From CBDFMG01 sp965221205 [NCBI: bacterium] (GTDB taxonomy: Bacteria; SM23-31), in NCBI GenBank assembly GCA_965221205.1, contig OZ244870.1:1178001-1242000 (forward strand): a DNA stretch of 64,000 nt, read 5' to 3'. Below, piece by piece: positions 20,975 through 32,841 of the stretch (its first letter is position 1; each line of letters opens with the position of its first letter). A program made the translations under genes and the position numbers. The notes beneath the pieces are model-generated. The model was not told the origin of the DNA and made no database searches. It saw nothing but the letters and a program-made list of their open reading frames with translations.

Positions 20975-21748
20975 GTGAACAAGCAAGTGAACAAGCAAGA
21001 TGAGAGAGAAAAAGAAGTTTTTAAAAGCTTCATAGAAGATGCTGGTTTAGAATGCTCTATAAATAGTTTTGAAGAGAGATTTAAAAAGAGATATCCTCCT
21101 GCTCCCGATATCCTATATGAATTCAAAGATTCACAATATGTTGCATTTGAACTAGTAGAAATTCTAGATAATGAATTTAAAAATAGAAATGTTCGTTATT
21201 CAAGAACTAATAAAATGTTTAAGAATCATCTTAAAAAGATGCCTTCAAATGAACAAAAGATTTTCAGAGAAAAATTCGAAAATGCTCTTTTGTATTTTCA
21301 TTTTAATGATAATTGCTCTACTAAACAGAGAGAATCCGTATTAGAACAATTATTTTATATTCTCCAAAGTTTAAAGTCAGATTATGAGGATGAAATAGAG
21401 ATATCCGACTTTAAATTAAGAAAGACGGTTAAATTTATAACTATTCGACGTAACTGTCCTGCTGGACCTACATTTGAATGTAATGCAGGAGGATTTGTTG
21501 GATTTGATATAATTGAAACATTAGAAAAAAAATCTTTAAAAAAGTATTGCTCCGACCATCCTATAGAGTTATTAGTATATATTGATACAAATCCGTTACA
21601 TCCAGGAGATTATTGGAAAGAAGAAGTGTTGGACTATTTGCGTCGCAATTTCAACAAGTCATGTTTCAGAAGAATTTGGATTTACAAAACTCAATCACAT
21701 GAAATTATTATAGAATTTCACAATGGTGAAGAAGAATATGGGGCTTAA
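20975..21748 (+). CDS. AT-rich gene of unknown function inserted between hyuA and hyuB
   Basis: The product has 257 residues and a GTG start with AGAGG eight bases upstream; the first 12 bases (GTGAACAAGCAA) are tandemly duplicated, so a second GTG at 20987 is also possible. The gene is visibly richer in A and T, with more Lys, Asn and Phe, than hyuA and hyuB on either side. I do not recognise a family. PPAPDILYEF followed by YVAFELVEI has the spacing of a PD-(D/E)XK nuclease core but lacks the usual Lys (E-L-V), and a second half has HPIELLVYIDTNP. Nuclease relationship is speculation. It overlaps the chosen hyuB start by 11 bases. Confidence 0.7.
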   Translation: MNKQVNKQDEREKEVFKSFIEDAGLECSINSFEERFKKRYPPAPDILYEFKDSQYVAFELVEILDNEFKNRNVRYSRTNKMFKNHLKKMPSNEQKIFREKFENALLYFHFNDNCSTKQRESVLEQLFYILQSLKSDYEDEIEISDFKLRKTVKFITIRRNCPAGPTFECNAGGFVGFDIIETLEKKSLKKYCSDHPIELLVYIDTNPLHPGDYWKEEVLDYLRRNFNKSCFRRIWIYKTQSHEIIIEFHNGEEEYGA

Positions 21749-23381: not shown

Positions 23382-23410
23382 TTGACAAGACTTTACTTTT
23401 TTTTTATATT
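23382..23410 (+). promoter_or_regulatory. Sigma-70-type promoter
   Basis: TTGACA at 23382-23387 and TATATT at 23405-23410 are separated by exactly 17 bp. It lies 51 bp before the ATG of the zinc-finger/ATPase gene at 23461. Match to the -35 consensus is perfect. Confidence 0.75.
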
Positions 23411-23460: not shown

Positions 23461-25161
23461 ATGAGCTCTCCTTTTTCCGAATTTTCACATAACCGTTCTA
23501 ATAATAATATCGATATGCTCAATAGAGCAAATCCCATCTTTGAAATCGCACGTGAACTTGGTATTCCGGTAGGGAAAAATGTCGTTCATTGTATAAAAAG
23601 AGAGAAGCATGTCAACAGTAATGGCGTACCCACAATGACGTTTAATTTGATCAAAAATACGTTCCGGTGCTGGGTGTGTCCCGATGTGTGTGGTGATGTT
23701 GTCGATCTTGTTATGCTCGCAAAAGATGTGGACAGGGAACGGGCAATCCAGTTTTTATCCATACGGAGCGATATAAAAACTGATAACGACAGAGCGAAAT
23801 TTTTCAAAGGAAAAAGTCTCGAAAAAATGGGATCCTCCGACCGGGAAGCAGTATTCAAGGATTTCTTCTCAGGTATGGAAAGCGACCAAGAAATCGATCT
23901 CATAGCATTTGCATCGACAAAAGGGGGAACTGGGAAAACGCTTGTCGTCAATAATATTGCTGTTATACTTTCCCTCATTACCCGTTACATCGGTAGCTAC
24001 AGAAAAGCTGATCCACAACATATTGAACTGATCGATCTTGATTTCGGCAAACCGGACCAGCGTCTTTTGCTTGGTATCGATCCGGAATACTACATAGAAG
24101 ACGTGTTTTATCAGCAGCCGAAAGAGCTTTTGTGGGACTGCCTTAGAGAACATATTCCTCTTGAAAATTTAAAGCTTGTATCGTCCTGTCCAATTAGAAA
24201 ATCGAAATCGCTTTACTATCTGAAGAAAAACGAAATCCTCTACATGCTCCACAATTCAGATGCGAATATAAAACTTGTCGATTTTAGCGGCGGTTCTGAT
24301 AAGGACACACTCGATTTTCTTAGTAGTATCAAAAGTAAAGTGTTTGTTATTAATCCCGACCGAGCATCCGTTGAGGCAGTCTTTAATCTCATTCTCAGCC
24401 TGCTCTACTATCCTATGAAACAGCAGTTTAAAGGCTCAAAAGCTGCGCTTGCGCTTGCTGAAAAATTACGTAACTGCAGCAGAAACGGATTTACTGTCAA
24501 CGACTTGCGTGACGAAATACACCGAATCGATAAGAAGCGCTCGGGTTTGAAAAAACTGAAAAATTTCTACAAAAACACAGTTAAACCCTTTCAGACAGAG
24601 CTTGGAATGTCTGTGAGCGGAAATGGTTCAATTTCAATTGAAAAATTAAAACAAGATCTGCCCGCTTTGCATAATAAAGTTCATGAAATACTTTTTCATA
24701 GTAATAGTTCATACTCCTATTCAAGAAAGAGCAAAATTTACCGAACACTCACTGATATTGAACATAATGTTCGTGTCTTTGATTCGTTTACATCCCGCCT
24801 GGACAACCTTCTTACGACATCGCTGTTCGGCCTTGTAATCAATAAGTGCGACAAGGAGTTGGCAGATACAGTAGCCGGAAACCTTGTAGATCGGATCGGA
24901 AAAACTTTCTCAATGAATTTGTCTCATCTTGGTAATATCCCGGAAGAAGAAGCGCTCAGAAACATTTCTAATTACGGTATGCCGTTTACTGTTCATGACC
25001 CCGAACACGAAGTGCTCAATTACTTTTTTAAGATTACCGACACAATCATCCGCCTCAAAAGTGGTTCCACTGAGAAGATTGTATTCGAACAGAGAGACTA
25101 TCTCAAAGATCTGAAAAAGAACTGGCTCGCTCAGACCAAACCCGTTGGTGTGCTTGCGTAA
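23461..25161 (+). CDS. CHC2 zinc-finger fused to a ParA/MinD-type ATPase
   Basis: The product has 566 residues. Residues about 24-100 resemble the DnaG-type CHC2 zinc finger: Cys44-x5-His50, then FRCWVC with Cys70 and Cys73, followed by GDVVDLVMLAKDVDRERAIQFL, the usual tail of that domain. Residues about 146-330 are a deviant Walker A ATPase (STKGGTGKT, Lys at 154 and 159; Walker B-like LIDLDFGKPDQ around 191-200; LVDFSGGSDKDTLDFL). After an inserted helical, Lys-rich segment (about 330-440), the C-terminus returns to MinD-like sequence (LVINKCDKE, LGNIPEEEALRN). CHC2 fingers bind DNA in primases; ParA/MinD ATPases position DNA or protein cargo. I know no named family with this combination. 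It has its own promoter and no obvious partner gene. Confidence 0.8.
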   Translation: MSSPFSEFSHNRSNNNIDMLNRANPIFEIARELGIPVGKNVVHCIKREKHVNSNGVPTMTFNLIKNTFRCWVCPDVCGDVVDLVMLAKDVDRERAIQFLSIRSDIKTDNDRAKFFKGKSLEKMGSSDREAVFKDFFSGMESDQEIDLIAFASTKGGTGKTLVVNNIAVILSLITRYIGSYRKADPQHIELIDLDFGKPDQRLLLGIDPEYYIEDVFYQQPKELLWDCLREHIPLENLKLVSSCPIRKSKSLYYLKKNEILYMLHNSDANIKLVDFSGGSDKDTLDFLSSIKSKVFVINPDRASVEAVFNLILSLLYYPMKQQFKGSKAALALAEKLRNCSRNGFTVNDLRDEIHRIDKKRSGLKKLKNFYKNTVKPFQTELGMSVSGNGSISIEKLKQDLPALHNKVHEILFHSNSSYSYSRKSKIYRTLTDIEHNVRVFDSFTSRLDNLLTTSLFGLVINKCDKELADTVAGNLVDRIGKTFSMNLSHLGNIPEEEALRNISNYGMPFTVHDPEHEVLNYFFKITDTIIRLKSGSTEKIVFEQRDYLKDLKKNWLAQTKPVGVLA

Positions 25162-25393: not shown

Positions 25394-26962
25394 ATGAAGT
25401 GGGTAGTGACAGCACAGGAAATGCGGAACATTGATTCCCGTGCAATCAATACTATCGGTATTCCCGGATATTCATTGATGGAGCGTGCCGGACTCGAAGT
25501 CGTTGAATCGTGTCTTGATGATTTTGGGCCTGTCTCCGGGAAATCTGTTTCTGTTTTCTGCGGGAAGGGAAATAATGGAGGAGACGGCCTAGTTATTGCC
25601 CGGGAAATGAAACGGCTTGGTGGTATCGTAACAGCATACATTTTTGCTAAACAGAGTGAATTAAAAGGTGACCCGTTATCAAAGTACACCACTTTGAAAA
25701 AAATGGGGATCCCTGTCCGCCATATTACCTCCCCTGCACAGCTAATTGAGATTCCTGAAGATTTTGATATTACCATCGACGCACTCCTTGGAACAGGGGT
25801 TCATGGAGAAGTGACCGGTATAATTGGTGCGGCTATCAGAAAAATCAATTCTCAGAGCGCGGTGGTTGTCTCGGTCGATCTTCCGTCCGGATTAAATACT
25901 GATAACGGTACATTCATCGGTACTTGTGTGAGTGCAGACGTAACCGTGACGATGGGGCTCCTCAAACGGGGATTGCTTCTGCATCCTGGAGCAATGGTGG
26001 CAGGGGAAGTAGTCATTGCCGATATCGGGTTTCCCGAACGTGCTATATCACCTGAAAGAGTCAAAACATTTTTTATCGAAAAAAGCGATGTAGTTTCGCA
26101 TCTGCCGCGGCGAATGCCATACTTCCACAAGGGTGATTGCGGACGTATCCTGGTTATCGGCGGTTCTCCGGGAATGACCGGTGCCCCTGCAATGTCGACA
26201 AACGCAGCGCTCCGCTCAGGAGCCGGAATGACACTCCTCGGGGTACCGAAAAGTCTGAACACAGTCTTAGAACAAAAAGTAACCGAAACAATGACACTTC
26301 CGCTCTCGGAAACAGAGAGTGGGGCATTAAGCAGAGATGCAGAAGAAAAAATTCTTGATGCTCTTGTATGGGCAGATGTACTGGCAATTGGCCCTGGTGT
26401 CGGACGAGATGAACAGACAATAAAACTCGTTCACTCTATTCTTGAACAATGCGAGCTTCCGGCAGTAATCGATGCAGATGCTCTATACGCCGTTTCAAAA
26501 AAACCGGGAATTCTGAAAAAAAGGGAAGCCGATACCGTCATCACTCCCCACGTTGGAGAATTTTCACGATTGATTCGGACAAATGACGCGAATCTCCTCG
26601 ACACGGAACGGATTGAACTTTGCAGAAAGTATGCCCGTCATTTCCGGTCGGTTGTACTATTAAAAGGCGCTCCGTCGATCACTGCATCACCGGAAGGCGA
26701 AATATTTATTAATCCGACAGGAAATGCAGGCATGGCTACCGCCGGGTCCGGAGATGTTTTGACAGGTGTTATTGCAGCGATAATAGGGCAAGGGGTGGAT
26801 GTAGTTGAAGCAACAATTACAGGAGCATACATTCACGGTCTTGCTGGTGACTTTGCTGCCGACGAATTTGGCGAAATTAGCATGATGGCAACCGATATTA
26901 TAAACTATCTTCCTTATGCATTTGAAGACATGTTTGGAAGATATCTTAATTCCGAAAGCTGA
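25394..26962 (+). CDS. nnr: Bifunctional NAD(P)HX epimerase / ADP-dependent dehydratase
   Basis: The product has 522 residues, the usual length of the fused repair enzyme. Residues 1-215 are the YjeF_N epimerase (MERAGLEVVE, CGKGNNGGDGLVIAREM, TIDALLGTGVHG, DLPSGLNTDNG). Residues about 235-515 are the ribokinase-like dehydratase (GRILVIGGSPGMTGAP, LAIGPGVGRDEQT, TPHVGEFSRL, and GNAGMATAGSGDVLTGVIA with the catalytic Asp). It repairs hydrated NADH and NADPH, epimerising the R form and dehydrating the S form. ATG 25394 has GGAG upstream. The vanZ-like gene follows after 13 bp and is probably cotranscribed. Confidence 0.95.
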   Translation: MKWVVTAQEMRNIDSRAINTIGIPGYSLMERAGLEVVESCLDDFGPVSGKSVSVFCGKGNNGGDGLVIAREMKRLGGIVTAYIFAKQSELKGDPLSKYTTLKKMGIPVRHITSPAQLIEIPEDFDITIDALLGTGVHGEVTGIIGAAIRKINSQSAVVVSVDLPSGLNTDNGTFIGTCVSADVTVTMGLLKRGLLLHPGAMVAGEVVIADIGFPERAISPERVKTFFIEKSDVVSHLPRRMPYFHKGDCGRILVIGGSPGMTGAPAMSTNAALRSGAGMTLLGVPKSLNTVLEQKVTETMTLPLSETESGALSRDAEEKILDALVWADVLAIGPGVGRDEQTIKLVHSILEQCELPAVIDADALYAVSKKPGILKKREADTVITPHVGEFSRLIRTNDANLLDTERIELCRKYARHFRSVVLLKGAPSITASPEGEIFINPTGNAGMATAGSGDVLTGVIAAIIGQGVDVVEATITGAYIHGLAGDFAADEFGEISMMATDIINYLPYAFEDMFGRYLNSES

Positions 26963-27365: not shown

Positions 27366-28195
27366 AAAACTCTCTTCAAAATGCACCTCATTTACGATAC
27401 CATTCCTATATCAATTAACAGGAATCAAAAGCACAGTTGACAACTTCTACAGTGATACTGCAGATTTTTACAGTTCACTCTATTCGTCAAAAAAATATGA
27501 TGATATTCCGATGTATGCCTCGATTGCCGCTCGGGACCGGTTCGCCTCTCTTAGATGTTGCTTGCGGAGATGGCAGGGTGGCGGTGCAGTTGGCACGACA
27601 GGGCCAAACTGTGTTTAGTTTTGATAAATCCCGCACAATACTTGAGCTCTTCAAACAGAGTATTGTGAAACTCCTTCCGGAAGACCAGGCACGAATTCAC
27701 ATCGTTCGGTCAGAAATACAAAATATTCCGTTTAAAAATCATTTTAAGTTGGCGATCATTCCTTATAATTCGTTTAATCACCTCCTGAAAAAGGGAGAGT
27801 AACAATCCTGTTTGAGTGGAATATTTAACGCTCTTGTTGCCGATGGGCTGCTTGTCATGGAGATTCTCCCTTATCACGAGACATATTGTGTTGGTTTGCG
27901 TTTTAGAAAGGTAGGAGTATTATCCGACGGAGCAACAATCGTCACAGCGTATTCGAAAGTAGATCATGATATTACACAAGATATCCACACTGTGAATTGG
28001 TATTTGAAAATTAAAAAATCGGGAAATCGTACTCGCCGGATAATGAGCACATTCGTCAGAAAAGATACTCCGCTTACTGCAATGAAAGCAATGATAATCG
28101 CAACAGGCTTTAAACTCGAAGAAATCCGGTATGCCTATTCAATAAACGAAAAATCAGGGAGCAAACGGATTTTAAGCGCCAGGAAGTCAAAATAA
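27352..28195 (+). pseudogene. Class I SAM-dependent methyltransferase, broken by a frameshift and a stop
   Basis: The N-terminal piece (27352 to about 27525) reads MSWIEKLSSKCTSFTIPFLY and DNFYSDTADFYSSLY. The frame then shifts by one, and LLDVACGDGRVAVQLARQG (SAM-binding motif I) continues to TAA at 27800-27802. The same frame goes on as CLSGIFNALVADGLLVMEI with the usual post-stop motifs and ends at 28195. Without the two lesions it would be a protein of about 280 residues. Start overlaps the VanZ-like gene. Substrate unknown; the two lesions could also be assembly errors since the remaining sequence is well conserved. Confidence 0.8.
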
Positions 28196-28352: not shown

Positions 28353-29237
28353 ATGAGGGATTGTATCATGGCACGTAAAACACGTAAAAAAGGTCCGGGT
28401 CGGGCGCACCATAAGGGGATCAGCGTTATTGAGTTGTTTAAGATGTTTCCCGACGAGCACGCGGCCAAAACATGGTTTGAGGCTCAGCGGTGGCTGGATG
28501 GGGTACGCCGGTGCCCTGCTTGCGACTCAGAGCACACGTCTGTTTCGTCTCACAAAACGATGCCCTATCGCTGCAAAAGCTGTCGGTCGTTCTTTTCAGT
28601 GCGTAAGAGCACGGTCATGGAAGGCAGCAATCTTGGCTATCGGGAATGGGTCATCGCTATCTATATGGCGACTACTAGCTTGAAAGGCGTTTCCAGTATG
28701 AAGCTACACCGCGACCTAGGAATCACTCAGAAGGCCGCTTGGCACCTTATGCAGCGCATCCGCAAAGGGTTTACCCTTAACACGGGTGTCCAGCTTCCCT
28801 GCCCGGTAGAAGTGGACAAGACCTATATCGGCGGCCTTGAAAAAAACAAACATAAACACAAGAAGATCAATGCGGGTCGTGATACGGTAGGAAAAAAGGC
28901 GGTGGTCGGCATCAAGGATAGAGGAACCAAACAAGTCCGTGCTGAGGTGGTCGATAACACGACCAAAGAGACCCTTCAAGGTTTTATCGATACCCATACC
29001 GATCCTGATACTAAGAAGTTCACGGATGAAAATACGTCCTATGCGGGCCTTCCCAACCGCGAATCGGTAAAGCACTCGGTAGGTTAATGGGTGGAGGGCC
29101 AAGCTCACACCAACGGCATGGAAAGCTTCTGGTCGATGCTCAAGCGAGGCTATCACGGCACCTTCTACCAGATGAGCCTATTATCTGTGGGACTGGTTGG
29201 GAAAAGGCTACGCTACCAAGACCTTATAGATTCATAG
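28353..29237 (+). pseudogene. IS1595-family (ISXO2/ISPna2-like) transposase, broken
   Basis: The start is ATG 28353 or 28368. An N-terminal zinc ribbon (RCPACDSEHT and RCKSCRSFFSV) is followed by LKGVSSMKLHRDLGITQKAAWHL and the DDE-core region, PVEVDKTYIGGLEKNKH (Asp of the first catalytic motif) and FTDENTSYAGL. An in-frame TAA at 29085-29087 interrupts just before GQAHTNGMESFWSMLKRGYHG (the final E motif). After YQMS about 60 residues are missing before GKRLRYQDLI, ending at TAG 29235. Nonsense plus deletion make it inactive. Codon use is more GC-rich than the neighbours. It stands directly upstream of the restriction-modification genes. Confidence 0.88.
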
Positions 29238-29323: not shown

Positions 29324-31363
29324 GTGATTACAAAACCGGAAAGAAAAATCATAAAAGTTCCAGATGGTCAAATCTGTGACTACATCGACGGTAAATTCCG
29401 AAAGGACACACCGGAAGAATATGTTCGTCAGACAATTGAAAAAAGATTGGTCAACGAGCATAAATACAAGAGCGAACAAATCAGTATAGAATTTGGTCTG
29501 AAATTGGGTTCCCGTCGTCCTCGTGCGGATATTGTAATCTTCTCCAAAGACAGTCCTGAGTGTACTCAAGATTATGTCTGGCTGGTTGTGGAATGCAAGA
29601 GTGAAAGAATCGAACCGAAAAATAAGAAAGATGGTATTGAGCAACTCAAGTCCTACATGAGTGCTTGCCCGAATTGTGAATGGGGCATGTGGACAAATGG
29701 CAAGTACAAGGAAGTATTGAGAAAAGTAAAAATAGAGGGAAGATACGAATTTCAGGAATGCAACGATATTCCCCCCGCCGATGGATCTTTGGAAGACGTA
29801 GACCGGCCAAATCGTAATAAATTAAAAAAAGCCTATGAAGATAATCTTTTGATGGTTTTCAAAACCTGCCATAATCATATCTATGTGACTGATGGAATGC
29901 AAAAACAGCCTGCATTTTTCGAGTTGCTAAAACTCATCTTCTGTAAAACACTTGATGAGCAAAATGTAGGAAGTTCCCTTGAGTTTTACGCAAAATCAAT
30001 GGAACGTTCTAATCCAGACGGGCAATTAACAGTCAGAAACCGAATTTCTAAAATTTTCGATAAAGTTAAAAAGCAGTTTCCACAGATATTTGAAGCAAAT
30101 GACGAGATCGGATTGCAACCCCGTTCGCTTGCATGGATTGTCTCAGAACTCCAACCCTATAGTCTGCTGGAAACCCATATCGATGTAAAAGGGAAAGCGT
30201 ATGAAGAGCTGGTAGGGGCAAATTTAAGAGGAGATAGAGGGGAATTTTTCACGCCGAGAAATATCATGCGCATGGCAGTTGAAATGGTTAATCCAAAACC
30301 AGAAGAAAAGATTTGTGATACTTCATGTGGTACAGGTGGCTTCCTAGTCATGGCAATGAACCATGTGATTGAGCAGTTAAAAACTAAGGTTGAAAACGAT
30401 TCTGGCAGACCAGAAAGTGAATGGACAGATCATGAAAAAAATACGGTTAGAGATAAAATAAAACAAATCGCAGCGGCAAATTTCTATGGATTTGACATCA
30501 ATCCTGATCTAGTCAAAGCTACAAAAATGAATATGGTTATGAATAACGACGGCAGCGGCAATATCTATCGAAATGATTCTCTATTACCGCCCCATGAATG
30601 GGATCTGGAGCTTAAGCAACAGTTGGCAGAAGCATTGAATATTGAAGCGGGTAGCATCAAAAACCCCGGCACCATTGAATTTTTTGATGTCATTGTTACT
30701 AATCCACCATTCGGAAGCAAAATACCCAGCAAAGGCAGCCATATTCTTGAACAATTTGAGATCGGCTATATTTGGCGTAACGAGCAATACGATAAAAGTG
30801 GACAAACAAACTGGACAATTTCTTCTAATTATCAATCATCAGCGCCTCCAGAACAATTATTTATCGAACGTTGTTTGCAATTCCTCAAACCCGGAGGAAG
30901 GCTGGCAATTGTTCTGCCAGATTCCATTTTAGGAAATCCGGGACTTGGGTATATTCGTCAGTGGTTGATTGAAAAAACGAGAATCATTGCCAGTGTGGAT
31001 TTGCACGTTGACACCTTTCAACCTAGAAACGGAACGCAGACGTCGGTCTTGATTGTTCAAAAAAAAGACACGAAGGAAACCACAGCGGAACAGCTTTCAG
31101 GTACAATCAGGCCGTACAACATTTTTATGGCAATGGTAGAGAAGGTCGGCCACGACAAACGGGGGAACACTCTGTTTAAACGGGATGAAAAGGGCAATGA
31201 ACTTTGGGTGCCGGAAGAATCCAATGTGTTAGTAATAGACAGAACATCAAAGGGTGATATCACCTATCAGCCCGAAAGCAAAACCCGTATCATCGACGAC
31301 CAGAGCCCTGAAGTCCCCCCTGTTTTTAGCGAGTGGAAACAACAGGAGGGTATTGTATGGTAG
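29324..31363 (+). CDS. N6-adenine DNA methyltransferase with N-terminal HsdR-like nuclease domain
   Basis: The product has 679 residues and a GTG start preceded by AAGGAGAT. Residues about 15-130 resemble the HSDR_N nuclease domain of type I restriction subunits: a PD-(D/E)XK core with Asp69 in RRPRADIVIF and Glu90-Cys-Lys92 in LVVECKSE. Residues about 280-620 are an HsdM-type methylase with KAYEELVG, motif I DTSCGTGGF (about 331-339) and catalytic motif IV NPPF (about 459-462). Nuclease and methylase in one chain plus a separate specificity subunit resemble BcgI-like type IIB/IIG systems more than classical type I. It methylates, and possibly cuts, foreign DNA. No separate hsdR lies nearby. 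It overlaps the specificity gene by 7 bases. Confidence 0.88.
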   Translation: MITKPERKIIKVPDGQICDYIDGKFRKDTPEEYVRQTIEKRLVNEHKYKSEQISIEFGLKLGSRRPRADIVIFSKDSPECTQDYVWLVVECKSERIEPKNKKDGIEQLKSYMSACPNCEWGMWTNGKYKEVLRKVKIEGRYEFQECNDIPPADGSLEDVDRPNRNKLKKAYEDNLLMVFKTCHNHIYVTDGMQKQPAFFELLKLIFCKTLDEQNVGSSLEFYAKSMERSNPDGQLTVRNRISKIFDKVKKQFPQIFEANDEIGLQPRSLAWIVSELQPYSLLETHIDVKGKAYEELVGANLRGDRGEFFTPRNIMRMAVEMVNPKPEEKICDTSCGTGGFLVMAMNHVIEQLKTKVENDSGRPESEWTDHEKNTVRDKIKQIAAANFYGFDINPDLVKATKMNMVMNNDGSGNIYRNDSLLPPHEWDLELKQQLAEALNIEAGSIKNPGTIEFFDVIVTNPPFGSKIPSKGSHILEQFEIGYIWRNEQYDKSGQTNWTISSNYQSSAPPEQLFIERCLQFLKPGGRLAIVLPDSILGNPGLGYIRQWLIEKTRIIASVDLHVDTFQPRNGTQTSVLIVQKKDTKETTAEQLSGTIRPYNIFMAMVEKVGHDKRGNTLFKRDEKGNELWVPEESNVLVIDRTSKGDITYQPESKTRIIDDQSPEVPPVFSEWKQQEGIVW

Positions 31364-32841
31364 CGAGACCCTCTCTATCTACACGAACAGTAGAAGGCCA
31401 AGAAATCCAAAGTTCTGATACTGATCGGGAGTTCAGCACAGGTCTTAAATGGACAACGGTTGGTGTTCGAGAAGTCGTTGAACAAGACTACCGCTTAGAG
31501 GCGAGCGTTTACAGTAATGATGGCAGACAGGCGAGGAAGGATTTAGAACAATGCAAGTGGGATGTTGTTCATTTGGGCGATGAATTTATTGAGGATACCT
31601 TTTATGGTTCTCGTTCAAAGAGAATTTATATTAATCAAAGCAACAAAGATGCTGTTGGTTTTTTGGGGAGTGCCGAAATGCTCTCAGTATATCCCAAGCC
31701 AGTTAAGTTTATTTTAAAAAAAGATGGGATCAGTACATTCTCTGTCAAAAGAGGGTGGATTCTTTTATCCAGATCAGGCACGATTGGAAACGTAACTTCT
31801 GTAAACAATACCCTAAAAAAGTATTTCATAAGTGAACATGCAATCAGAATTTCTTGTACAGAATATTCAGGTTACATTTATGCATTTTTGAAATCTAAAA
31901 TAGGAAGGGTTTTCTTAGAGTCAAGTATATTTGGTGCTGTAATTAGTCAAATTGAACCCCAACACTTGAACCACATTCCGATTCCCAATCCGCCACCCAT
32001 CTTCAAACAAGCAATTCACAATCTGATTGAAGAATCTTTCAAATTAAGGGATGAATCCAATGAACTGATAGATGAAGCACAAGCCTTGTTGAAAGAGGCT
32101 TTACAATTGCCTGATATTGAAAAGTTACAGGCCAACCAGGTAGATCAAAAAGCTGGCATGCTGAATTATTCCGTTCCATTAAGTGAGTTGGGTAATCGTC
32201 TGGATGGTTCCTATCATGTTCCCATTGTACAAGCAATCATACGTCATTTAGAGAAAACGGCAAGAGAGATCGTCACGGTTGGTGACAGTCGAATAAGTCA
32301 GTCGGTCATTTTGCCCGGCCGCTTCAGAAGGATCTATGTTGAAGAAGGCAGCGGGATTGTGTTTTTTGGAGGGAAACAGATATATGAATTGGATCCAAGC
32401 AACAAAAAGTACCTTTCAATAAGCCAGCATGGGGATCGAATAAAAAATCAATTAACACTTCGTGAAAATATGATAATAATTACATGTAGCGGAACGATTG
32501 GAAAAGTAGCAGTAGTTCCTGAACATTGGGATGGTTGGACCGCAAATCAACATATCATCCGCGTCGTACCGGCAAACAATGAAACTGCCGGTTATCTCTA
32601 CGCTTGGCTTTCAAGCGATTACGCCTACCCTCTTATAACTCGATATACTTATGGGGCTGTGGTTGATGAAATTGACGATAAGCAGGTCGCGGAAATTGTA
32701 GTTCCCTTGTTGCGGGATGAGAATACACAGGGAACAATAAACGACAAGGTTTTAGAAGCAAATCAAAAGAGAACCGAAGCCTATAAATTGGAACAGGAAG
32801 CGTTAACTGTCCTCAATGAGCAAGTCATTTATGCGCGGTAA
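31357..32841 (+). CDS. DNA specificity subunit (HsdS-like) of the RM system
   Basis: The product has 494 residues. ATG 31357 is chosen because GGAGGG lies seven bases upstream; the frame is open earlier inside the methylase gene. Two target-recognition units can be seen, each with the pattern of type I S proteins: first WILLSRSGTIGNVTSVNN and SGYIYAFLKSKIG (about residues 135-190), then NMIIITCSGTIGKVAVVPEH and AGYLYAWLSSDYAYPLI (about 370-430). Helical conserved regions follow each (LRDESNELIDEAQALLKEAL; NQKRTEAYKLEQEALTVL). Each unit would contact half of a bipartite target. It is translationally coupled to the nuclease-methylase. Confidence 0.9.
   Translation: MVARPSLSTRTVEGQEIQSSDTDREFSTGLKWTTVGVREVVEQDYRLEASVYSNDGRQARKDLEQCKWDVVHLGDEFIEDTFYGSRSKRIYINQSNKDAVGFLGSAEMLSVYPKPVKFILKKDGISTFSVKRGWILLSRSGTIGNVTSVNNTLKKYFISEHAIRISCTEYSGYIYAFLKSKIGRVFLESSIFGAVISQIEPQHLNHIPIPNPPPIFKQAIHNLIEESFKLRDESNELIDEAQALLKEALQLPDIEKLQANQVDQKAGMLNYSVPLSELGNRLDGSYHVPIVQAIIRHLEKTAREIVTVGDSRISQSVILPGRFRRIYVEEGSGIVFFGGKQIYELDPSNKKYLSISQHGDRIKNQLTLRENMIIITCSGTIGKVAVVPEHWDGWTANQHIIRVVPANNETAGYLYAWLSSDYAYPLITRYTYGAVVDEIDDKQVAEIVVPLLRDENTQGTINDKVLEANQKRTEAYKLEQEALTVLNEQVIYAR

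What the first reader, a model, noticed from the sequence alone, without database searches (positions are those of the whole stretch)
23461..25161. Fusion of a primase-type CHC2 zinc finger with a ParA/MinD ATPase
Seen: a CxxxxxH...CxxC finger with the CHC2 tail (GDVVDLVMLAKDV) precedes a KGGTGKT ATPase, and the MinD-like C-terminus resumes after a basic insert. Known: CHC2 fingers occur in DnaG-type primases, and ParA/MinD proteins position DNA, plasmids or division proteins. Inferred: a DNA-reading positioning ATPase. I know no described family with this order. The gene has its own consensus promoter and no mobile-element genes beside it, so it may be chromosomal rather than plasmid-borne.
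Basis: partly seen in the sequence, partly recalled or inferred. Interest (0 to 1): 0.72.

Follow-up and report, generated by a model that had tools for sequence, protein, structure and literature searches.

The report
Primase zinc finger fused to positioning ATPase
A bacterial gene joins the zinc finger of DNA-primer-making enzymes to a FlhG/MinD-type molecular switch ATPase; the same combination is kept in related uncultured bacteria, but what it positions or controls is unknown.

Summary
Window 23461-25161 encodes an intact 566-aa protein: a CHC2 (DnaG-type) zinc finger (residues ~15-110), then a FlhG/MinD-type ATPase (146-533) split by a ~130-residue helical insert. CHC2 is below Pfam's cut-off in the window copy (15.5 vs 24.9 bits) but at or above it in 4 of 5 orthologs; the C, H, C, C ligands are invariant in 6 of 6. 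The finger's fold was not confirmed. Orthologs occur in 5 of 6 held genomes of one phylum (one named candidate division KSB1) and in no other of 386 genomes surveyed; no fusion was found in viral, phage or plasmid collections. It lacks a primase catalytic domain, and FlhG sits beside FlhF in three genomes, so it is neither primase nor flagellar FlhG. One genome also has a sister copy with a J-domain in the finger's place. Most likely it is an ATP-switched positioning or regulatory ATPase whose N-terminal module is an interchangeable adaptor; DNA binding, partner and cargo are untested. New variant of a known kind.

The parts
23382..23410 (+). sigma-70-type promoter TTGACA-N17-TATATT
   Evidence: 11 of 12 consensus; CTTGAC, a T-rich spacer and TA-x-ATT align upstream of 6 of 6 copies
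23461..25161 (+). gene for CHC2-FlhG-like fusion ATPase, 566 aa
   Evidence: orthologs in 5 other genomes, one of them cut by a contig end (G003)
23503..23790 (+). CHC2 zinc finger domain, residues about 15-110
23590..23679 (+). zinc ligands C44, H50, C70, C73 (C-x5-H-x19-C-x2-C)
   Evidence: invariant in 6 of 6
23896..24426 (+). FlhG/MinD-like ATPase, first part (residues 146-322)
   Evidence: residues 196-255 modelled with pLDDT under 50
23920..23940 (+). deviant Walker A KGGTGKT (residues 154-160)
   Evidence: K154, G155, G156, T157, G158, K159 invariant in 6 of 6
24427..24816 (+). ~130-residue helical insert (residues 323-452)
   Evidence: helical in the AF2 model, block pLDDT 66-90; net charge +11 here, +1 to +7 in the other four full-length copies
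24817..25059 (+). ATPase fold resumes (residues 453-533)
25060..25158 (+). C-terminal tail with conserved K552 and W555
   Evidence: identical in 5 of 5 full-length copies; membrane-tail test inconclusive
25394..26962 (+). NnrDE (YjeF) NAD(P)HX repair gene, usual downstream neighbour
   Evidence: Pfam; downstream in window, G002, G004 and, after two extra genes, G005; not in G001; G003 contig ends

Best explanation
It is a chromosomal, vertically inherited member of the ParA/MinD (A/D) switch-ATPase superfamily, of FlhG/FleN type, in which a CHC2 finger takes the N-terminal place and a helical bundle is inserted in the core. Proposed working: ATP binding closes a sandwich dimer (inferred from intact catalytic motifs). 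This pairs two fingers, which act as the adaptor to a specific partner, most plausibly single-stranded DNA or a replication/priming protein. The helical insert and tail contact the regulator or matrix, and hydrolysis releases the complex. Shown: the domain order, conserved motifs, retention in one phylum, lack of a primase catalytic domain, a separate FlhG in three genomes, and a sister paralog with a J-domain in the finger's place. Inferred: dimerisation, adaptor role, nucleic-acid or replication partner, positioning.
For: CHC2 by profile matches in several libraries and by profile-profile comparison. K154, K159, D192, D194, D274 invariant in 6 of 6. FlhG is the best structural match (Foldseek E 8.3e-4, the only hit under 0.001; VIA Z 12.3, 189 residues, rmsd 3.2). 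Orthologs in 5 of 6 genomes of the phylum. Conserved promoter and partly conserved neighbours. The CHC2 and J-domain versions lie together on one side of a 100/100 branch, apart from FlhG and stand-alone ATPases, so two different N-termini occur on one ATPase lineage.
Against: No partner gene is consistently adjacent; neighbours look metabolic (NnrDE, 5-oxoprolinase subunits, VanZ). The isolated DnaG zinc domain did not bind ssDNA (PMC5429622, passages). The window finger's net charge is 0 and the insert is not uniformly basic. The finger's fold was not confirmed, and the full model is weak overall (mean pLDDT 62; Foldseek TM-score 0.27 by query length). A separate DnaG was found in only 2 of the 5 fusion-bearing genomes. 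Dimerisation and localisation are untested.
Confidence: 0.45

Rival explanations
1. A membrane-associated FlhG/MinD-type regulator in which the CHC2 finger is a structural or protein-docking zinc module with no DNA role, as FlhG/FleN dock on FliM/N or FleQ.
For: Closest folds are FlhG and FleN. MinD and FlhG use the membrane, ParA uses DNA (PMC10241942, passages). A conserved K/W C-terminal tail. FliF is present in 5 of 6 genomes. The J-domain version fits a protein-docking N-terminus.
Against: FlhG (by sequence and place) already sits next to FlhF in G001, G004, G005. Tail amphipathicity clearly beat shuffles (0.6%) in only 1 of 5 copies; the three FlhG tails also failed this test, so it is uninformative.
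Confidence: 0.33
2. A regulator of replication priming: the finger mimics DnaG's and competes for or delivers primase, helicase or ssDNA under ATP control.
For: The finger belongs to the primase zinc-domain family; plasmid hits include CHC2/TOPRIM proteins and a DnaG. A separate DnaG exists in G001 and G004.
Against: The finger has C-x5-H-x19 spacing, unlike C-x2-H-x17 in the phylum's DnaGs. No replication gene seen directly adjacent in the loci read.
Confidence: 0.12
3. A domesticated or resident mobile-element or defence protein (plasmid partition, phage, or DRT-like defence).
For: The finger matches PADLOC RTasDnaG-like in 6 of 6 (best 4.7e-14) and phage families; an IS1595 transposase and a MADS2-like methyltransferase lie 3-8 kb downstream in the window.
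Against: No relative in phages or viral contigs. Plasmid hits cover 13-27% of the query, centred on the finger. No reverse transcriptase domain at E<=1 in Pfam. In the related loci read around the gene I saw no phage, plasmid or defence gene, without a systematic annotation.
Confidence: 0.05
4. The N-terminal match is a chance zinc-like motif and the protein is just a MinD paralog.
For: Window copy alone is below Pfam's cut-off; weak AF2 model without a DnaG hit.
Against: 4 of 5 orthologs at or over the cut-off; hhalign 96.4%; 6 of 6 match DRT and phage CHC2-bearing profiles.
Confidence: 0.03

Closest known systems
FlhG / FleN (MinD-like flagellar number regulator)
   Same: ATPase fold, deviant Walker A, two-part match around the insert; best PDB hits 4rz2/4rz3/5j1j
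   Different: Adds a CHC2 finger and ~130-aa helical insert; not next to FlhF; a separate FlhG beside FlhF in three of the same genomes; other side of a 100/100 branch in the tree
MinD (TIGR01968/TIGR01969)
   Same: Sequence profile match to minD_arch, E 3.2e-11
   Different: 42.9 bits against a cut-off of 201.75, and 26.3 against 212.9
DnaG primase zinc domain (CHC2, PF01807)
   Same: Zinc ligands, P-(S/T) and N residues before C-x2-C, G and hydrophobic helix after it, following helix
   Different: C-x5-H-x19 spacing; no TOPRIM/RNA-polymerase or helicase-binding domain found
CHC2 fingers of DRT RTasDnaG-like/UG29 and phage/plasmid proteins
   Same: Best profile matches of the finger; plasmid finger L064 shares the VAR-x-LGL and VIDLVM signatures
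   Different: Those belong to reverse-transcriptase (by family name), helicase or TOPRIM/primase proteins, not a MinD-type ATPase
J-domain + same ATPase paralog (L009, G002)
   Same: ATPase, insert and tail; 35-38% identity to the CHC2 versions, 46% over a partial copy
   Different: PF00226 J-domain (53.4 bits, cut-off 27.8) in place of the finger; beside a nadD-like gene; matched over its full length only in G002 of 386 genomes at E<=1e-18

Membership tests
CHC2 zinc finger (PF01807) | Profile score over Pfam cut-off | tested here: inconclusive
   Window 15.5 and G005 14.9 bits: not met; the other 4 copies at or over 24.9
CHC2 zinc finger (PF01807) | Four zinc ligands C, H, C, C | tested here: met
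   Invariant in 6 of 6
CHC2 zinc finger (PF01807) | Zinc-ribbon fold | tested here: inconclusive
   AF2 block pLDDT 34-39 at residues 41-80 of the full model, mean 55 in the finger-only model; Foldseek without a significant hit
DnaG primase | TOPRIM/RNA-polymerase domain | tested here: not met
   No such Pfam match at E<=1; TIGR01391 12.9 of 283.6 bits, residues 57-122 only
ParA/MinD (A/D) ATPases | Deviant Walker A KGGxGK(T/S) with switch and Walker B aspartates | tested here: met
   K154, K159, D192, D194, D274 invariant in 6 of 6; residue roles recalled
ParA/MinD (A/D) ATPases | ATP-sandwich dimer | not testable with these tools
   No assay; only conserved motifs seen
ParA/MinD (A/D) ATPases | Matrix-binding surface (membrane tail or DNA-binding basic residues) | tested here: inconclusive
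   Hydrophobic-moment test; the three FlhG tails also failed it
FlhG | Linkage to flhF and N-terminal DQAxxLR (motif name recalled) | tested here: not met
   Proteins starting DQAxRLREI follow FlhF in G001, G004, G005; the fusion starts with the finger and none of the copies read lies beside flhF
MinD (TIGR01968) | Equivalog cut-off 212.9 bits | tested here: not met
   26.3 bits

The most novel reading that the evidence does not exclude
A new A/D-ATPase subfamily in which the N-terminus is an interchangeable adaptor (primase-type finger, or J-domain recruiting Hsp70) and in which the CHC2 version positions or gates replication-priming sites in the cell, i.e. a spatial switch coupled directly to the replisome.
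Probability: 0.12. Interest if true: 0.8.

Novelty: new variant of a known kind. Interest (0 to 1): 0.52.

Why it matters
[quoted passage not shown] Here a candidate adaptor is built into the ATPase, and in a sister gene a J-domain holds its place. If the adaptor reading is right, this is a natural domain-swap experiment on how such ATPases choose cargo, and perhaps a direct link between a positioning switch and DNA priming. It also gives a concrete, conserved gene to test from a poorly studied uncultured phylum.

Tried and rejected
Window's own genome: none held, so copy number there is unknown. Viral contigs and phages: no relative. Plasmids: 3 records with the window protein and 6 with the G002 protein, all below 80% coverage. 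Most matches stay in the finger and linker; three (H6-H8) run to query residues 158-183, a little past the P-loop. Of the records I opened four: a TOPRIM-domain protein, a lone CHC2 finger beside a UvrD-type helicase, an unannotated 963-aa CHC2 frame without a KGG motif, and a DnaG primase; none is a fusion. DNA-level plasmid search: none.

Flagellar role: the fusion co-occurs with FliF in 5 of 6 genomes, but in G006, which shows neither, the contig ends inside NnrDE, just where the fusion would be expected (NnrDE was sought in G001, G003 and G006 only, and not found in G003). The pattern proves nothing.

Separate DnaG: PF01807 found a full DnaG in G001, G004 and G006 only. In G002 and G003 it found the fusion (and in G002 a weak 19.3-bit place), in G005 nothing. 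So 'not the primase' rests on the missing catalytic domain and on 2 of the 5 fusion-bearing genomes; these assemblies look incomplete.

Membrane-tail idea: hydrophobic-moment test uninformative. 'Basic insert' as DNA binder: not conserved. Fold of the finger: Foldseek of a pLDDT-55 model gave no meaningful hit. VIA lists no row for the finger, which tests nothing.

Surveys in the phylum of G214 and G073 (the same 2 genomes) and of G007 (1 genome) added nothing. The 386-genome surveys are broad but shallow, scored at most 3 candidates a genome, and do not search other KSB1-type or FCB phyla in depth. The genome-contig scan reaches close relatives only. Paper searches showed no CHC2-ParA/MinD protein among the papers listed; two were swamped by unrelated papers, and only the open-licence PMC library was searched.

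Full report
1. What is there. Window 23461-25161 (+) is an open frame of 566 aa. Residues about 15-110 form a CHC2-type finger and 146-533 a MinD-superfamily ATPase interrupted by ~130 residues (323-452). In the window protein alone the Pfam CHC2 match is below cut-off (15.5 vs 24.9 bits), so relatives were needed.

2. Relatives. A scan of the contigs of 84,980 species with six peptide patterns, which reaches close relatives only, found one relative: a 'candidate division KSB1 bacterium' MAG, L001, 57% identical in its best segment, residues 16-560. From that genome (G001), 5 of 6 held genomes of its phylum carry it at 42-59% identity, one copy (G003) cut by a contig end. A 386-genome survey of relatives (8 of 386 at E<=1e-15, at most 3 candidates scored a genome) found the two-domain form only in those five; G006, G073 and G214 matched in the ATPase only. 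A 145-genome survey agreed (6 of 145 at 1e-12, G006 in the ATPase only). No relative was found in viral contigs or phages. Plasmid matches centre on the finger, 13-27% of the query. KSB1 as a member of the FCB group is recalled; one search showed names only.

3. The finger. 4 of 5 orthologs reach Pfam's cut-off. 6 of 6 finger segments match PF01807, the DRT families RTasDnaG-like (best 4.7e-14) and UG29 (best 2.1e-10), and phage family phrog_11992 (best 9.6e-15). Profile comparison with three DnaG zinc domains from the phylum (G001, G004, G006) gives 96.4%, E 1.1e-9, 86 columns. In the PDB it matches DnaG 2au3 (E 0.014); a designed repeat protein has a better summed E-value (9.2e-9) through one helix repeated six times, none significant singly. 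C44, H50, C70, C73 are invariant, spaced C-x5-H-x19-C-x2-C against C-x2-H-x17-C-x2-C in the DnaGs. By signature and mean identity the finger is nearer a plasmid CHC2/TOPRIM protein, L064 (33%), than the phylum's DnaGs (24-29%) or another CHC2 protein of G004, L034 (19%). That suggests, but does not show, a mobile-element origin of the finger. Structure prediction did not confirm the ribbon: block pLDDT 34-39 over residues 41-80 in the full model, mean 55 alone with a two-row alignment, no meaningful Foldseek hit.

4. The ATPase. The Walker A and the aspartates of switch and Walker B are invariant (roles recalled). The full model is weak (mean pLDDT 62; residues 196-255 under 50). Foldseek's only hit under 0.001 is FlhG 4rz2 (E 8.3e-4; TM-score 0.27 by query, 0.56 by target). 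In a tree of 17 ATPases the CHC2 proteins and the J-domain protein lie on one side of a 100/100 branch, away from FlhG and the stand-alone ATPases. The CHC2 group itself is weakly supported against the J version (56/69), so which N-terminus came first is open.

5. The J-domain sister. G002 holds both the CHC2 gene (L013) and L009, where PF00226 (53.4 bits, cut-off 27.8) precedes the same ATPase, insert and tail. At E<=1e-18, 5 of 386 genomes matched this protein, and only G002 over the J-domain end.

6. Context. Upstream is hyuB in the window, G001 and G005, and nrnA (a DHH-type protein, name recalled from its sequence) in G004 and G003; the G002 contig starts too close to tell. Downstream are nnrDE, vanZ and a methyltransferase gene in the window, G002 and (after two extra genes) G005, and nnrDE and vanZ in G004; in G001 the nnrDE cluster lies elsewhere, and the G003 contig ends. 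A CTTGAC, T-rich, TA-x-ATT element aligns 5' of 6 of 6 copies. This is a chromosomal gene with its own promoter. No neighbour suggests a partner. Full DnaG genes were read in G001, G004 and G006, but not found in G002, G003 and G005. FliF is in 5 of 6 genomes and FlhF over cut-off in 4 of 6. A FlhG (called by sequence and place) follows FlhF in G001, G004 and G005. So the fusion is not the flagellar FlhG. It is not a primase because it lacks the catalytic domain, and at least two of the five fusion-bearing genomes have a DnaG besides.

7. How it most likely works. I favour an A/D switch whose N-terminus is an adaptor, because two unrelated modules occur at that place on one ATPase lineage. The finger's partner is most plausibly ssDNA or a replication protein, but an isolated DnaG zinc domain did not bind ssDNA (PMC5429622, passages read), so a protein partner is nearly as likely. 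A membrane-based FlhG-like role is the main rival (PMC10241942, passages read). Dimerisation, zinc binding, cargo and matrix are all inferred.

8. Novelty. Paper searches listed no description of the architecture in the open-licence library, two of them swamped by unrelated papers; nothing else was searched. PMC7226244 (passages) describes a membrane DnaJ-domain protein, SflA, tied to FlhF/FlhG in Vibrio, a thematic parallel only. PMC12704722 (listing only) surveys domain fusions of the ParB fold, not of the ATPase. I file it as a new variant of the ParA/MinD kind.

Noticed in passing
window 27437-28195: Methyltransferase pseudogene: two halves in one frame split by a stop, both matching one 280-aa methyltransferase in L011.
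   Followed up: partly
window 28353-29087: IS1595-family transposase (99 bits, cut-off 75) directly after the broken methyltransferase.
   Followed up: partly
window 29324-32841: DNA methyltransferase close to MADS2 of methylation-associated defence (629 bits, below the cut-off of 720) plus a type I specificity subunit: a possible defence island.
   Followed up: no
window 20975-21748: 257-aa gene without Pfam or NCBIfam match sits between hyuA and hyuB, which are adjacent in L011.
   Followed up: no
L009:1202-2851: J-domain fused to the same insert-bearing FlhG-like ATPase, next to a nadD-like gene (name recalled from sequence).
   Followed up: partly
L025:747-1721, L027:473-1459: Conserved ~325-aa protein of unknown kind directly upstream of the stand-alone ATPase in G003 and G004.
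   Followed up: no
L022:2-1150, L024:2233-2937: ExeA-like AAA protein (name recalled from sequence) beside the related ATPase in G214, and an ExeA-like frame on the same stretch in G073; these are the two held genomes of another phylum.
   Followed up: no
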